The notes under the pieces were generated by a model, which ran no database searches, had not been told where the DNA came from, and saw only the letters and a program-made list of their open reading frames with translations. 64,000 nt of DNA, taken from assembly GCF_002443255.2 (NCBI RefSeq), contig NW_019211458.1, forward strand, positions 36,568,165 through 36,632,164, given 5' to 3'. Both the position numbers and the translations under genes were made by a program. Origin of the DNA: Varroa destructor. Taxonomy: Eukaryota; Arthropoda; Arachnida; Mesostigmata; Varroidae. Shown here piece after piece: positions 16,797-29,644 of the stretch. Positions within the stretch are counted from its first letter, which is position 1, and every line of letters starts with the position of its first letter.

Positions 16797-19700
16797 TCAA
16801 ATGGTTGGAACCACGCCGCCTTGACGTGGATCCCACGAATGACCAAAGTCGTCAGGCTCGTTGTAGATATTATCCTGTATCCAAAGGCGGTCCGAGGACG
16901 AGTATCTGAAAGGTATTTTGTTTGTGAAAAATAGAACACTTATCTAGAATAATCAAACGTACAAGCTCCGATTAACCATTATAGTACAATTACATACACA
17001 CATAGTAGTTATACACATACTATACAGTCTAGGCTAATGAAGAAAGTTATAATGATAATAATATTTGTTATTATTATTACAGCGGGTCGATTTTAGATAG
17101 CATCTCCACTTTTTCGTCGGAGGAAATTAATGGTATATAACTTGTTTTATGTCTAACGCTAAACTCTTCTTCGTATGTAATAGCCATAAACTTTATTTAC
17201 TTCCGATTGGTTAACTGAATATAAATAAGAAGTACATGAGCTTTTAAAATCATTCTTACTCTTGTGGCGGCAAATCGAATGGTACAACAACCTGATCCGT
17301 GCTAATGGGCCTATTAGGCACATACAAAATACCGCACTCGTATGAAAGTGGCGCTTTCGTTTGCAGATTACCCCAAGCTGCTTTCGACAGATTGGCAGAG
17401 CTCATCAAAAACCAGAACGTTCGCTGATAATCCGGCGATGTTCGTATATAAAACTTAACATGAGGCGCCGCTCTGGACCTGCCCACTTGATCCGCTTTCC
17501 ATCGATGAAGCCATTTGGACAGCCATCGTTGTTTCATATGAACCTATGCGAGCGAAACATTGAGGCTTGAACAATAAATGCTAATAGAGTCGAAATAAGG
17601 TCACTGTGCCTTTCGCTCTCTTTTCTCTCTCTCCCTCTCTCTCTCGACAGAGAGAGAGGGGGAGATAGAGAAAGAGAGAGAGAAATTACACATACACTAG
17701 AGTTGTCCCTATTTGTTCAAATTTGAGAGCAAACGCTATTTTAGAATGACATGTGGAAAGATGAAGATATCAAAATGAAAGTCACTTCAGACTAAAGAAT
17801 TTGTAGAGGTCGTTCTCAACGCAGTTTTTAATTCCTACCTTTCCGGAGTAAGGTAAACTCCGTCCTGCCTCATAGCCTTCGAAGCTCTTACGGACTTCTT
17901 CGATAGTCGGATACAACGCCTATAGCCAGGAGAATACTTAGCGTGTGTTATCTTCAGCTCAAAAGAGGACAATATATTTTATGGCAAAACGTTCATACCT
18001 AGATATATCGGCTAACCGCTCCAGAAAAATGAATATTAGCTATGATAATACGTGGCGGTCAAACGTAAAAATATACAATATGTCAAATATTATTTTATGA
18101 AATACAAATCCTCTAAAGATATGAAATACAATCCTCCCCCAGGCCTAAAAAAGCGAACGTCACTTGCCAAGCTGTTATTGTGTAACAAATAAAGGAAATT
18201 ATTTAATTTTAACGTCGTTTAGAGTGCGTATATATATACATATATGTATATAGTAAAGCTTTAGGTTGAATTAAACTTGCTTGTATGTTGTTCACGGTAA
18301 CATCAGTGATATTTGTGCCTTTCTGAGTAGTTCGGTTGTTAGCCAAGAGTGCACGACCGAAGGTTGGTCTCAGCCAAGCTGGGTAGACGTCAAGGATCAA
18401 CATTCAGGAAACACAGTCAGACAATAAGACGATATAGCAATCGAATCCTTAATAAAAAGTTCGTTCTACGGTTGGATATACAGTTCGAGTCAGACATTTT
18501 CACATGCCTCAGCTCTGGCTCTACTCATCGTTATATTATAATTGTGCATTAGTCGAAGAGCGATTTTACATACAGAGCGATAATAAGAAGCACATTGAGA
18601 AAAGGAACAGCTAAAAAGGCGTCGTGAAATTCATCTAGCGCTGGCTACACAAATAAAATGAGGTGCACACAAAATAAATGCAGACAGCCCATATTTTGAA
18701 ACGGCCTGTGCGCTTACCGGTGTCGTCTTGTCCAAGGGTACCGATACTGGAAAAACAGAACGTGACAGGATTCTCCTTGGAGAGCGGAGGAACATTCTTA
18801 GTTAGAATAGAATCCACTGTCACTAGCCCGCTCTTGATCGAATTTGGTGTAGATCCTAAAATAAGGCAGGTTTTGTAGCATCATTCACGGTTTTCACTAG
18901 AGATTACTACTGAATAATTTGATACAGCTTTAAAAAGAGTATTTGCATCAAGTAAGTCATATTAATGCATTGTGTATAAAATATATGTGTCGCAGATATG
19001 ATTATTCATTTCGATTTTTCTAAAAATAGAAACTACGGCGTAGATAAAATAGGTTATACCGATGAAGTAGCAGTTATCGATAAGCGAAAAATCATAGTCA
19101 GCATAACTTTCTGCTAGTTCAAGCAACTTTTTCTTCTGGTATGAACGCAGATATGTGCATAATGCCGATCGAAATCCTGGAATACACATTGACACTCCGG
19201 TAAATGTGTGTTAAGACGTTTTACCAATGTACTGAAGCATAGTACGATATCTGGTGACCTGTAGACTTGCGATACTATTTAGTTTCAATGACGACTGAAC
19301 AAAGGAGAAAGCAGTGTCTCTAGCTTGCAGAATAAAACTATATATATATACATATATATCGCAAAAAATGTTTATGAAATTCAATAAGTTAAAGCATCCG
19401 ATTCAACTAGTAGATATATTAGTGTACAAGTAATCGCTGCAGCCTTATAACCGTAACTAGTCAAATTTATTTATTGTTTTTATTTTACTCCCATTTCTTT
19501 CACACGATTGTAGGTTGACGCTTTTCATTCTAGTTCTTTGTGGGCCAACAGCTGACTTGGAAATTTTCTTTTTGCCATACCAACCTGTGTCTGAATCCTG
19601 TCCTTTCTTGGGCTGGGAAGATTTTTTCAGGAGCGGACTGACCCACAACATTTGGCTTTTTTTACCCCAGTCGGGCCCGTAGAGATTAGCTGTAGTTACG

Positions 19701-22322
19701 ATGAGCCGCAGGTGACCTTTATACTTCAGCGAAATCATTTTGCTGTGGTGAGTGCCAAAGCGCGATAGTTCAATAGGCAGTAAAGCCACGTTCCGAAATA
19801 CCTACAAACCGAGATTACACAACGGAGAAAAGAAATCACTACAAAAAATTAGCATTAAAAACGAGTATTGTCGGAAAGGAGCAGACAATATGAGCACAAA
19901 AACGATCGACGTGCAACCCCCCATCAAAAACGATGTCTCCGGACAAAACGGGTACCATGCGCATAATCATCTAGAAACTGAATAATTTTCTGCGTTATGC
20001 TCTAATCTAAACAAAGTCATTCAAATATTACGTCCGGGATACCACTGGACGTAGACCAAAAAGGATTGAATATTTTCTTTTTTCGTTATCAACTATTTCA
20101 CTCATTGTTATATTGGTGCAACAAGTAAACAGAAGTATAACTATCAAACTTACAAAGAACGACGACAAGTAGTTTGGCAACAAAAGATTTTTGACAAAGC
20201 CACTTATTGACAAGATTTGCAAATATGACGACTCGTATTAATCGCTAGTATATAATCACATTTTTCTTCATTCTTCATAACTATATGCCTACAACAACAG
20301 TGGAAATAATAGTTTGGTTAAGGGCGTAATACCTGTCTCTGGGCTATTAAAAGCTTAAGAAGGTCGTCACTTTGTTGCACTACGAGTAGCATAGGGATTT
20401 GTCGGTACTCTGGCGGATACTGCTCCAACAGCCACTCCATATCGTAGACATAGCTAAGCATTGATACGAAATTGTACATCATAGTTAGTATCCATTGGAT
20501 TGAATTAAACTATTAACCAACCATCTGCACATAAAAAGCCTGCTCACTGACCTTCGTGCCAAACGTGACCAGCTTTAACACTTCAACATTTATAAAAGCT
20601 GAGTCAAAATTTTTTTTTTTTTGAAACATCACATGTACACATAATAGCGACACAAGTATATGTACGATATACATACATAAAGTTACCTGAAGTGCACAGC
20701 TGACTCAAGTTGGTCGCTCACATCCTCATGAAGTATTTGCTTCAAAGATCGAGTAAAAGTATCCGAATTAAATTTGCTTTGAAGGCCTTCGCACTTCGTA
20801 AGATAGAAGCCACGTAGCCGCGAGTCATGTGAATTTTCCAGAAGATGTTCTGAGCTTGTGCGATAACACATAAATCCATACGGACATGGTTTTGTGCCTT
20901 TAAATAAAATGATTTTATTTCTCCTATAACATTTTCCTCAGTTGATTTTCATGTTTACCCACTTTAGAAGCTTTCTATCAATTGGTCTAGATAGACCGCT
21001 TAGGCTCCCCGAACAGAAATTTTGAGCTTTAAAGCGTATGCGCCACGAAGTAGAATGTTCGCATAACCTCTTAGGAACCATTTTTCTGCATCAAGATAAA
21101 ATTTCTACGTAAGCAATAGTACAGTGAATACCTGAGCTCTCGAAATTATGATCAGAGCCAACTGCAGAATGCGATGCCGGTTCCCCTTTCGATGGGCAGT
21201 TCAAATGGTTTACCGAATACTCGGGTGGGAATTCCTGTAAGCGTCTTTGTATTTTTCTACATTTTTCTTCATTTTTCTCTAAGTCGTTCTCCTCCACGGA
21301 CGTTTTCGTCAAACCCTGATCTTTCCTGGATGATTTTGTGAAGACGAAGCAATGGCTGGATCCTAAAGCTGGACCATTAACGGAAACTGGCCTATATGAG
21401 CAACATACAACTTCGGCTGTTTTGTTTGAGGACACAAAACTTGTGTTTAACTTTGACGATGAAGGAGCGGTAGATAACGGCTTCTGATGTGGGATCCGTT
21501 CAATTTGTGGCTTTTTCCTTGGAGAGGCAAAGGTGTCGGGTTTAAGCTTCACGGGCGAAATCTTTGAGACAGCTGAAGCAGACCGTTCGAGAATTGAGAC
21601 AAAATATAAATAAGTAAAATTGATATGACCGTAACTCCTGCATTAATATTTTCTAGAACGAAAGCTAGGCTCTTTCCTAAGATTTTGTGATTTCTTATAG
21701 GTAATTATAGCTTCCCGTTATGTACAACAGGAGTTGCCGCAAAATCTTCCGTGTAATTAGCGTTTCCTGTAAAAAAGCATAAATTGTAGCGTCCGGAGAA
21801 AATTATACCAAACAATTTTTTACACTGGTTCGTGGTATTTTTTCGCATTATAATATAATTTTTGCGCGTCAAATGCCGCTAGCCTCAAAGAACTTTGTGT
21901 CGGCCTTATTTTTTGCAAAACCAGAAAATTCTCCGTAGTAATATTCACCTCTGTACGTCAATTCCTTGGTAATGACCTTTTAGAATAACCTGTACGCATA
22001 TAATGTGCGAAATATATAATGCGATTTCTATATAGTTTCTATATAGTTGTAGCAGCTGTCTGGTAAATGTTATATATCCTTAAGACAGGGCATATGTACA
22101 TCTGTAAGGTCCATTTTAAACAGGTTCGCTGACGCAAGCCTGTCTATATAGGGTTATTTAAGAGAAATTTCACTTACGAGCGCTGTCATTTTTGGTAGAA
22201 TCTTTTGTCGAATTTTTATCTGGTGACTCTGCTTGTCGGCTTTTTTTCGGCACATTAGATACGATTTCCACATCACTGTCATCACTATCTGAAATTTCGT
22301 GTACTTTTCTTGGACCCGCCAT
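16797..22322 (-). CDS. TDP1: Tyrosyl-DNA phosphodiesterase 1 with an N-terminal PBZ zinc finger, 11 exons, complete
   Basis: This enzyme hydrolyses 3'-phosphotyrosyl bonds, releasing stalled topoisomerase 1 from DNA in the nucleus, and belongs to the phospholipase D superfamily. Exons in order: 22322-22178, 21572-21132, 20897-20687, 20453-20333, 19801-19585, 19176-19060, 18855-18718, 18378-18296, 17919-17839, 17543-17260, 16905-16797. All are bounded by GT/AG with matching phase, giving 648 residues (human about 608). The N-terminus is acidic and Ser/Asp-rich (ISDSDDSDVEI), as in other TDP1s. Residues 200-219 form a CPYGFMCYR-type PBZ finger. Catalytic motif 1 is GTHHSKM...TTANL (H325, K327, N345); motif 2 is PHVKFY...SSANLSKAAWG (H546, K548, N569). 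The spacings of 20 and 23 match the human enzyme. The intron before exon 4 carries a TACTAAC-like branch site. The exon 8 donor (GTGAAC) is the least certain junction; a GC donor 15 bases further is an alternative. Confidence 0.95.
17605..17690. repeat. Polypyrimidine tract followed by polypurine tract (CT)n/(GA)n in a TDP1 intron
   Basis: CT-rich sequence (about 17617-17646) is followed by GA-rich sequence (about 17649-17684) around a short gacag centre. The two halves are largely complementary, so the strand can fold into a long imperfect hairpin. It lies in the intron between TDP1 exons 9 and 10. Confidence 0.85.
20832..20891 (-). other. PBZ-type (C2H2) poly(ADP-ribose)-binding zinc finger inside TDP1 exon 3
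   Basis: The segment matches the PBZ consensus C-x5-C-x6-H-x5-H exactly, with ligands C200, C206, H213 and H219. The family signature PYGxxCYR between and after the cysteines is present. The known family includes APLF and CHFR, which bind poly(ADP-ribose). It lies at the start of exon 3, immediately before the first core strand (GFYLTKCEG). The consensus HPGD after the last histidine is not kept: here HDSR follows. Confidence 0.88.
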
Positions 22323-22360
22323 AATTTCCGTTAGTGCTCTATTTCGAGCCAATAGCAGCA

Positions 22361-22400
22361 TTCACAGTAGTCACGTGGCTTCATCTAAGTAAAGGAGAAT
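22361..22400 (-). promoter_or_regulatory. TDP1 proximal promoter: E-box beside an alternative upstream ATG
   Basis: A perfect CACGTG E-box lies at 22372-22377, and a CCAAT sequence lies at 22349-22353 on the plus strand. An in-frame ATG at 22361 would add 13 residues (MLLLARNRALTEI). Because that ATG is only about 11 bases from the E-box, transcription may start downstream of it, so I chose the ATG at 22322. Confidence 0.35.
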
Positions 22401-28057: not shown

Positions 28058-29644
28058 TTATGATTTGACCCCGTTGGCCAGACAACAGGCAAAGCAGATG
28101 CCTATCAGCTCAATAGCGCCAATGACGAAGCCAGCTATGCCGACGTACACGGAGAACTTCTCGACCTTCTGAACAAGCATTTCCATACAGCCCGGGCGTG
28201 CGCTCGGGTTAGCACCGCAGGACTCAGGTATGCTAGCGGGTTGCTCCAGGTTGACCCAGTCCGTGGATGAAGTCACTCCGCAACACTCCAGCTAACATGA
28301 CAAAATAGATGTTATTAGTGGCTAACGCACTCGAAGAGACAAAATCGATAGTAATTGTTCAGTAGCAAACCGAGCACAATACCTGCGCTACAATACAGAA
28401 AAATTGTGTTATAAAGCAAGCAAAAAAGATTATGGCATTTCATATAACAAAAAGAGTCTTTACGGTGAACTCATTGAGCTACTTTTTTACTCAAAACATG
28501 ATCAAGGCCATACAATGTATCTGCTAACCATATCTGCCTGAGCTAAAAGGCGCTACAACGCGCCCTCCGCCTTCTCGATCAGCTCAATGAGAATAAAGGC
28601 TCCTCATGCTGCGTCTCACGTAATATCAAATCATTAAATCTTTCAGTTCCTACATTGCTTCCCTCTTAGGCATCCTTAAACTGTAGTACGTCCACACATT
28701 TTACAGCATGCACTGCCCTAGGCATGTTCCACGCACGTTGAGCCATAGAGCTTCTGTGCGTTCCGCTCAGTTTTATATCCACATCGTGATCAACTAATCA
28801 TATACTTATCGTCAAATAAATAACTTAATGTTTATACCCGTTTGAGAAAAACAACTAGCTATAATATTGACGGCGATAAGTGTGTCATGCGAATTTCAAA
28901 TAACACAAAACTCGATCAGGTCCCGTCAGAATAGATAAGCATCCAGCATTTCTTTAGCACGTTAACGCGCCGGTCTCGTAATGTATGTCCATGCAGTCAT
29001 ATGCTGAGCGTCTTTCCTACCTGCTTCTGTACAAAGTCCCAAGCTTGCTTTGCCGGATTGACCTCGCCACGCTTGTAATAGTCGCGCATTGATGCTCTTA
29101 ACTGCTGCTCGGTGATCTCCTTCGCTTTGCCGCGATAGACGAAGGCCAGAACGCCGACTGTGATCTCGGCACACAACAATAAGAACAGCAACGTTGAAAA
29201 CTGCAATGATAAGCAGGATGAATGACAAAAAAAGACCGTAAATGTATGACACGAACGAAGAAGGAAGTCATCTCTTAGAAAGGGCGTACTTACTAGATGA
29301 CGTTCAACGGTCCTACGAACAATTCAAATACTCCCATCATATCACACGTGGCTTAGGTAAAAGATAGTGCCTGGTAGATTGCTAGGCCACGAGGCTCGAT
29401 TCTACCTATGGGCACACATACACAACATGAGTCAATAAAACGGATGACGTAATACCATCGTGAGCATGCAGTAGCTCTCCTGAGAAGCGCCACAGCATCC
29501 TAAGAAAGCAAGCAGAAATACGGCTACACCGATCACTATAAGAGCTATGGGAGCGCTGACGTAGTTCTCTCCAATGAGAGGGCCTGTCCCCTTCATGAAG
29601 TGCAGGGATACCGCGCCGCACACGATGACCACTATGCCGCATAC
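28058..29644 (-). CDS. Tetraspanin, CD63-like; first exon uncertain
   Basis: A four-pass membrane scaffold protein. Three exons are certain and in phase 0: 29644-29456 (end of TM1, small loop and TM2, with VCGIVVIVCGAV and FLGCCGASQESYCML), 29200-29021 (TM3 LLFLLLCAEITVGVLAF, start of the large loop) and 28291-28058 (LECCGVTSSTDW, PESC, GC, then TM4 ending FACCLANGVKS). The CCG motif and PxSC...GC define the family; the end resembles CD63 (GIVFACCL in human). The large loop has only four cysteines because PESC is followed by G rather than C. A candidate first exon at 31031-30975 reads MKSIWDIF...IFSIFWG and splices in phase, giving 219 residues. It lacks the usual Cys-rich N-terminus and KYLLF-like motif, so I leave it out of the span. 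Confidence 0.9.

What the first reader, a model, noticed from the sequence alone, without database searches (positions are those of the whole stretch)
16797..22322. TDP1 carrying its own poly(ADP-ribose)-binding PBZ finger
The sequence shows an exact C-x5-C-x6-H-x5-H PBZ signature with PYGxxCYR in the same exon as the first TDP1 core strand. The exon joins on both sides are phase-perfect, so it is one protein. From established knowledge, vertebrate TDP1 has no PBZ and reaches damage through PARP1 contact. Inference: this lineage built the PAR reader into the repair enzyme, coupling PARP signalling directly to removal of trapped topoisomerase 1.
Basis: partly seen in the sequence, partly recalled or inferred. 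Interest (0 to 1): 0.85.

Follow-up and report, generated by a model that had tools for sequence, protein, structure and literature searches.

The report
Mite TDP1 with inherited, eroding PBZ finger
The DNA-repair enzyme TDP1 of a Varroa mite really does carry a zinc finger of the kind that reads poly(ADP-ribose) damage signals, but this is a widespread invertebrate design that the vertebrates sampled lack, and in these mites the finger looks worn rather than newly built.

Summary
An 11-exon minus-strand gene (22322..16797) encodes a 653-aa TDP1 with intact catalytic residues; CPYGFMCYRTSSEHLLENSH (residues 200-219) has PBZ ligand spacing and shares an exon with the start of the core. A V. jacobsoni record differs at 2 of 653 residues, so the window is Varroa. 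'This lineage built the PAR reader' has the wrong direction: PBZ-TDP1 records come from cnidarians, molluscs, echinoderms, lancelet, chelicerates, crustaceans and insects; 16 of 16 vertebrate rows (14 species) lack it. Pfam and UniProt already annotate it. In three mesostigmatan genera the finger is degenerate: Varroa's scores below 194 of 196 distinct fingers outside the group, keeping the ligands, Tyr-Gly, Tyr and Arg but missing five of nine consensus positions. Insects and crustaceans with equally diverged cores keep good fingers. The tether to the core is 6 residues, against at least 16 in 80 other rows. The genome holds a PARP1-like exon and another well-kept PBZ.

The parts
22178..22322 (-). 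Exon 1: start codon at 22322; HEISDSDDSD acidic N-terminus
   Evidence: similar to the starts of Galendromus and Tropilaelaps TDP1
22323..22361 (-). Possible upstream in-frame start (MLLLARNRALTEI), used in the V. jacobsoni isoform X1 record
21132..21572 (-). Exon 2: presumably disordered N-terminal region (inference)
20687..20897 (-). Exon 3: PBZ finger plus start of the TDP1 core
20827..20886 (-). PBZ finger CPYGFMCYRTSSEHLLENSH, residues 200-219
20333..20453 (-). Exon 4: TDP1 core
19585..19801 (-). Exon 5: first catalytic motif, H325 K327 N345 (H at 19747-19745)
19060..19176 (-). Exon 6: TDP1 core
18718..18855 (-). Exon 7: TDP1 core
18281..18378 (-). Exon 8: TDP1 core; followed by a GC-AG intron
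   Evidence: the join agrees with P0001
17839..17919 (-). Exon 9: TDP1 core
17260..17543 (-). Exon 10: second catalytic motif, H551 K553 N574 E592 (H at 17462-17460)
16797..16905 (-). Exon 11: C-terminus and stop codon

Best explanation
This is the only TDP1 gene seen in the mite's genome, in an old animal layout: a disordered N-terminus, one PBZ zinc finger, then the phosphodiesterase core. In other invertebrates the finger probably brings TDP1 to breaks marked with poly(ADP-ribose) by PARP1, on a flexible tether, so that trapped topoisomerase 1 is removed there (inferred from PBZ biology; I found it shown for no TDP1). In the mesostigmatan line the zinc-holding residues and the active site were kept, but several finger positions changed, the tether shrank to six residues and the core changed a great deal. 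The likeliest reading is a folded finger with weakened single-site PAR binding, held close to the catalytic domain. Shown: gene model, fusion, distribution, sequence erosion, short tether, intact catalytic residues, a PARP1-like exon in the genome. Inferred: zinc binding, PAR binding, its weakening, and recruitment.
For: Fusion and active-site residues. PBZ-TDP1 in named species from cnidarians to insects. 218 of 260 proteins (259 fetched plus the window) hold the ligand spacing; the set is biased, because searches used PBZ-bearing queries. Of 214 motif-bearing rows outside Mesostigmata, taking the best finger of each, 119 match all nine consensus positions checked and none fewer than six; Varroa 4, Tropilaelaps 2, Galendromus 5. 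All 12 of 12 zinc ligands are kept in the three genera. Conserved finger columns changed: Varroa 4 of 8, Tropilaelaps 6, Galendromus 3, against at most 2 of 8 in 80 other rows, among them insects and crustaceans whose core columns are as changed or nearly so (37-82 of 215, against 49-51 here). Tether 6 residues in 3 of 3, against a minimum of 16 and median of 45.5 in those 80 rows. A PARP1-like exon, E 1.7e-86. Another PBZ in the same genome scores 46.6 bits, against 26.1 here. Both PF06087 matches in the genome fall in this gene.
Against: The Varroa finger keeps Y202, Y207 and R208; PMC6264785 names the corresponding APLF residues as those critical for ADP-ribose (passages), so binding may be intact. 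Within each protein the excess of finger over core change is significant only for Tropilaelaps (one-sided p 0.003; Varroa 0.09, Galendromus 0.30), on eight columns. My finger scores favour rows with close relatives in the training set, and Mesostigmata had none. No structure could be predicted.
Confidence: 0.6

Rival explanations
1. Fully working PAR reader: the finger still binds PAR at damage sites through Y202, Y207 and R208 and recruits TDP1 in Varroa as it would in other invertebrates.
For: Ligands, Tyr-Gly, Tyr and Arg are present; a PARP1-like exon is in the genome.
Against: Missing: K/R at -3 (a K stands at -2), the second basic residue, Asn, Pro and the late aromatic, each 81-98% conserved in the other rows. 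Relatives lose contact residues (Tropilaelaps both Tyr, Galendromus Arg). Even single APLF fingers are reported to bind at only 0.52 and 8.3 uM (Li et al. as cited in PMC9881148, passages).
Confidence: 0.25
2. Structural relic: the finger no longer reads PAR and survives as a zinc-stabilised cap next to the start of the core, or binds something else (RNA, DNA or protein).
For: Zinc ligands kept in all three genera while contact residues vary; six-residue tether.
Against: No structural or biochemical evidence; Y202, Y207 and R208 are still there in Varroa.
Confidence: 0.13
3. New fusion made in this mite lineage.
For: None found beyond the window itself.
Against: The same order, PBZ then core, is in cnidarians, molluscs, echinoderms, lancelet, ticks, spiders, crustaceans and insects.
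Confidence: 0.02

Closest known systems
PBZ-TDP1 of ticks, spiders, molluscs, insects (some records named glaikit) and other invertebrates
   Same: PBZ upstream of a TDP1 core in one protein; acidic SDSD-type N-terminus in several
   Different: Their fingers are closer to consensus (at least six of nine positions) and are tethered by 16 or more residues in the 80 rows aligned
Human TDP1
   Same: Catalytic core (E 7e-80 to PDB 1mu7)
   Different: PMC4245714 lists APLF, CHFR and SNM1A as the only mammalian PBZ proteins (passages). Human TDP1 binds PARP1 directly, with D115 and R137 proposed as contacts (abstract of PMC13203358), inside the N-terminal region 1-149 (PMC9876888, passages), and is PARylated (PMC8095074, passages)
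Human APLF tandem PBZ
   Same: Best solved-structure match of the finger (2kqb)
   Different: Two fingers acting together; APLF is a histone chaperone and end-joining factor, not a phosphodiesterase

Membership tests
TDP1 (PF06087, phospholipase D superfamily) | Two HKN motifs plus Gln and Glu of the active site | tested here: met
   H325 K327 N345 Q356 and H551 K553 N574 E592 all present; E 1.5e-95. That these are the defining residues is partly recalled (HKN pairs also in PMC10547559)
PBZ finger (PF10283) | C-x5-C-x6-H-x5-H zinc ligands | tested here: met
   residues 200-219; 1 of 20,000 shuffles
PBZ finger (PF10283) | Score over the curated Pfam cut-off of 22.7 bits | tested here: inconclusive
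   21.4 bits in the full protein, 25.4 for a 70-aa piece of the exon, 26.1 in the genome scan
PBZ finger (PF10283) | [F/Y]G after Cys1 and a basic residue two after Cys2 (consensus in PMC4030884); aromatic right after Cys2 (APLF; PMC6264785) | tested here: met
   Y202, G203, Y207, R208
PBZ finger (PF10283) | K/R three before Cys1, second basic residue after Cys2, F/Y two before the last His (PMC4030884) | tested here: not met
   T, T and N in Varroa
PBZ finger (PF10283) | Binds poly(ADP-ribose) | not testable with these tools
PBZ-TDP1 architecture of invertebrates | PBZ upstream of the core, in one reading frame | tested here: met

The most novel reading that the evidence does not exclude
TDP1 was a built-in PAR reader in the ancestor of cnidarians and bilaterians. 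Vertebrates dropped the finger and replaced it with direct PARP1 contact through the N-terminal region where the finger had been, while mesostigmatan mites are on a second, independent path: the finger keeps its zinc but loses PAR contacts and is fused almost flush onto a remodelled catalytic core.
Probability: 0.35. Interest if true: 0.6.

Novelty: new member of a known kind. Interest (0 to 1): 0.42.

Why it matters
In mammals only three proteins are listed with PBZ fingers (PMC4245714), and the coupling of PARP1 to TDP1 is explained by protein contact and PARylation of TDP1 (PMC8095074). Many invertebrate TDP1s carry a putative PAR-reading finger of their own, which gives natural comparisons (fly, tick, mite, lancelet against fish) for how PAR signalling is wired to removal of trapped topoisomerase 1. 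Five searches of the held open library that bear on it (listings capped) showed no paper describing a PBZ in TDP1. In seven papers that hold both words I read passages (in one search the TDP1 passages only) and found none.

Tried and rejected
New fusion in this lineage: rejected by relatives in many phyla. Chance motif: rejected. Broken gene: rejected; frame open, catalytic residues intact, second species nearly identical. Second, ordinary TDP1 gene elsewhere in the genome: not seen (six frames, exon by exon, only the 4 best candidates scored). Mesostigmatan TDP1 as a foreign or ancient paralogue: not excluded; the stem is very long, but grouping with ticks (p-AU 0.20) or with all chelicerates (0.15) is not rejected, and the shared PBZ and SDSD start favour plain descent. 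Core acceleration as something unique to these mites: not borne out on conserved columns, where a damselfly row has 82 of 215 changed and a sawfly and two beetle rows 49-50. Trees as proof of loss in vertebrates: they do not give it; the root is not inferred, and fish and frog do not group with the lancelet, although that clade is not rejected (p-AU 0.33). The linker count by regular expression found an anchor in only 105 of 218 rows, one of them false (P0147); I replaced it by the alignment count. The PBZ consensus as printed in PMC4030884 has one more residue between Cys2 and His1 than these proteins; a regular expression with that spacing matched 0 of 218, so the per-position counts use the observed spacing of six. 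HPF1, PARP regulatory domain and PARG searches of the genome did not complete. The tree lost 7 of 46 chosen rows, all insects, for want of an anchor motif; one search used 26 rows, without insects, crustaceans or cephalopods. I scanned 10 of 29 long open frames of the window for other genes.
Full report
What is there. The minus strand from 22322 to 16797 encodes a complete TDP1 of 653 aa in 11 exons. Nine introns are GT-AG; intron 8 is GC-AG. Pfam gives Tyr-DNA_phospho at E 1.5e-95, and the best solved structures are human TDP1 (E 7e-80). The eight active-site residues checked are present in all three mesostigmatan rows and in every other row of an 86-sequence alignment, apart from one row gapped at the last four. 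The finger CPYGFMCYRTSSEHLLENSH is at residues 200-219, exon 3, 20886..20827. Its nearest solved relatives are the PBZ fingers of human APLF (E 2.4e-6). Shuffles make chance unlikely: 1 of 20,000 for ligand spacing, 0 of 20,000 with the tyrosines, glycine and arginine.

Where it comes from. A protein search returned a V. jacobsoni TDP1-like record (P0001) differing from the window protein at 2 of 653 residues and starting 13 residues earlier. The genome scan for PF06087 gave two matches, both in this gene.

How common the fusion is. Species are named by the records; their place in the animal tree is recalled except for Varroa and Galendromus. The search with the window protein returned 24 rows: 7 with the ligand motif and 17 without, of which 16 are named vertebrates (14 species: 13 fishes and a frog) and one is unnamed. 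A profile of five PBZ-bearing TDP1s returned 958 hits, the best 120 listed; 116 of the 120 carry PF10283 with PF06087 in the precomputed column, and of the other four Varroa, Octopus and Argonauta hold the ligand motif while a partial Trichuris row, which begins inside the core, does not. The list includes Actinia and Pocillopora, many molluscs, Lingula, Lineus, Dimorphilus, echinoderms, Saccoglossus, Branchiostoma, spiders, ticks, horseshoe crabs, a scorpion, Nymphon and a millipede. A third search, from an unnamed row whose nearest named hit is a copepod, returned 264 hits, 120 listed, with Daphnia, Eurytemora and many insects including Aedes, Tribolium and a Musca record named glaikit. In all, 218 of 260 proteins (259 fetched plus the window) hold the ligand spacing. 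The 42 without are 16 named vertebrate rows, the partial Trichuris row, a Hyalomma row that Pfam still calls PBZ but that lacks the first Cys, a Clastoptera row, and 23 unnamed rows, several of them short. Searches used PBZ-bearing queries and listed only the best hits, so the fraction is biased and the hits not listed were not seen. The fusion appears at least as old as the split of cnidarians and bilaterians, and the vertebrate lineage most likely lost it; sharks, lampreys and tunicates were not seen. UniProt already names several of these 'PBZ-type domain-containing protein'.

What is special here. Against 196 distinct finger stretches outside Mesostigmata (median 57.3 bits in my position scores, each scored without itself), Varroa scores 24.5 (below 194 of 196), Galendromus 27.8 (below 194) and Tropilaelaps 0.6 (below all 196). 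The two below Varroa are second, degenerate fingers of two bugs, Cimex and Apolygus, that also carry a good one. The scoring favours rows with close relatives in the set. Varroa misses the basic residue three before Cys1 (a Lys stands one place on), the second basic residue after Cys2, Asn and Pro (97% and 92% elsewhere) and the late aromatic (98% F or Y). Galendromus lost the arginine (98%). Tropilaelaps lost both tyrosines. No zinc ligand is lost in the three. The tether between last His and core is 6 residues in 3 of 3 mesostigmatans, against at least 16 and a median of 45.5 in the 80 other non-vertebrate rows of the alignment.

Is it only fast evolution of the whole protein? The core is much changed too: 49-51 of 215 otherwise conserved core columns differ, and 23 of 105 near-invariant columns are changed in all three genera. 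Within each protein the finger differs more (4 of 8, 6 of 8, 3 of 8 columns), but the one-sided test is significant only for Tropilaelaps (0.003; Varroa 0.09, Galendromus 0.30). A check made at the end is more telling: insect and crustacean rows with 37-82 of 215 core columns changed have at most 2 of 8 finger columns changed, and no other row of the 80 exceeds 2. So a diverged core does not by itself bring a diverged finger; and a diverged core is not peculiar to these mites. In trees the stem leading to the three genera is about 3.2-3.6 changes per column (two pieces either side of a midpoint root), while their tips are 0.13-0.21. A clade of ticks plus Mesostigmata is not rejected (p-AU 0.20).

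Is there a signal to read? The same genome holds a PARP1-type catalytic exon (E 1.7e-86 to PARP1 chains, 1.6e-57 at best to PARP2); PF00644 gave five matches in all. It also holds a second, well-kept PBZ (SKPLCKWGPLCYRKNIDHLQEFAHPH, 46.6 bits; Trp in place of the first Tyr) at the start of another gene, and a third, partial match at 23 bits. So PAR signalling parts appear to be present, and another PBZ in this genome is well kept. That is one control gene only; PARG and HPF1 searches did not complete.

Mechanism. PBZ fingers bind adenines of neighbouring ADP-ribose units through conserved aromatics (PMC4030884, passages). Single APLF fingers are reported to bind at 0.52 and 8.3 uM, the pair far more tightly (Li et al. 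as cited in PMC9881148, passages). Human TDP1 is coupled to PARP1 by direct contact and PARylation (PMC8095074, passages). My reading is that the ancestral TDP1 read PAR directly on a flexible tether, and that in mesostigmatan mites this function is weakened or changed while the zinc ligands are kept. The PAR-binding step and its weakening are inferences.

Literature. Eight searches of the held open library were answered; five bear on PBZ in TDP1 (8, 15, 28, 46, 65), with listings capped. No listed title or abstract describes it. I read passages, not whole papers, in the seven listed papers that hold both words, with no mention in what I saw; only the TDP1 passages were shown. The founding PBZ paper (Ahel 2008) and the APLF structure paper tried are not held, so either may list such proteins.

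Noticed in passing
P0029, P0031, P0036 (spiders Trichonephila, Araneus, Oedothorax): TDP1 with two PBZ motifs, recalling the tandem pair of APLF. Two bugs (Apolygus, Cimex) have a good and a degenerate one.
   Followed up: no
P0220, P0250, P0251 (unnamed sources): TDP1 records with a CUE domain (PF02845) and no PBZ ligand motif: perhaps a ubiquitin reader in place of a PAR reader.
   Followed up: no
P0021, P0026 (Octopus, Argonauta): Finger with the residue after the second Cys changed to Thr; the precomputed Pfam column misses it, but ligand spacing is intact.
   Followed up: partly
22323-22361 (-): Thirteen extra in-frame residues (MLLLARNRALTEI) in the V. jacobsoni isoform X1; basic and hydrophobic, possibly a mitochondrial presequence as an alternative start.
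   Followed up: no
L003 (G000 C1:72114839-72114916, minus): Well-kept PBZ at the start of another Varroa gene, perhaps HPF1 (recalled); the HPF1 family search did not complete.
   Followed up: partly
29000-29323 (-): Tetraspanin exon (PF00335, E 2.5e-11).
   Followed up: no
Mesostigmata stem of the TDP1 tree: About 3.2-3.6 changes per column before the three genera split, against 0.13-0.21 on their tips. Whether other genes show the same burst was not tested.
   Followed up: partly
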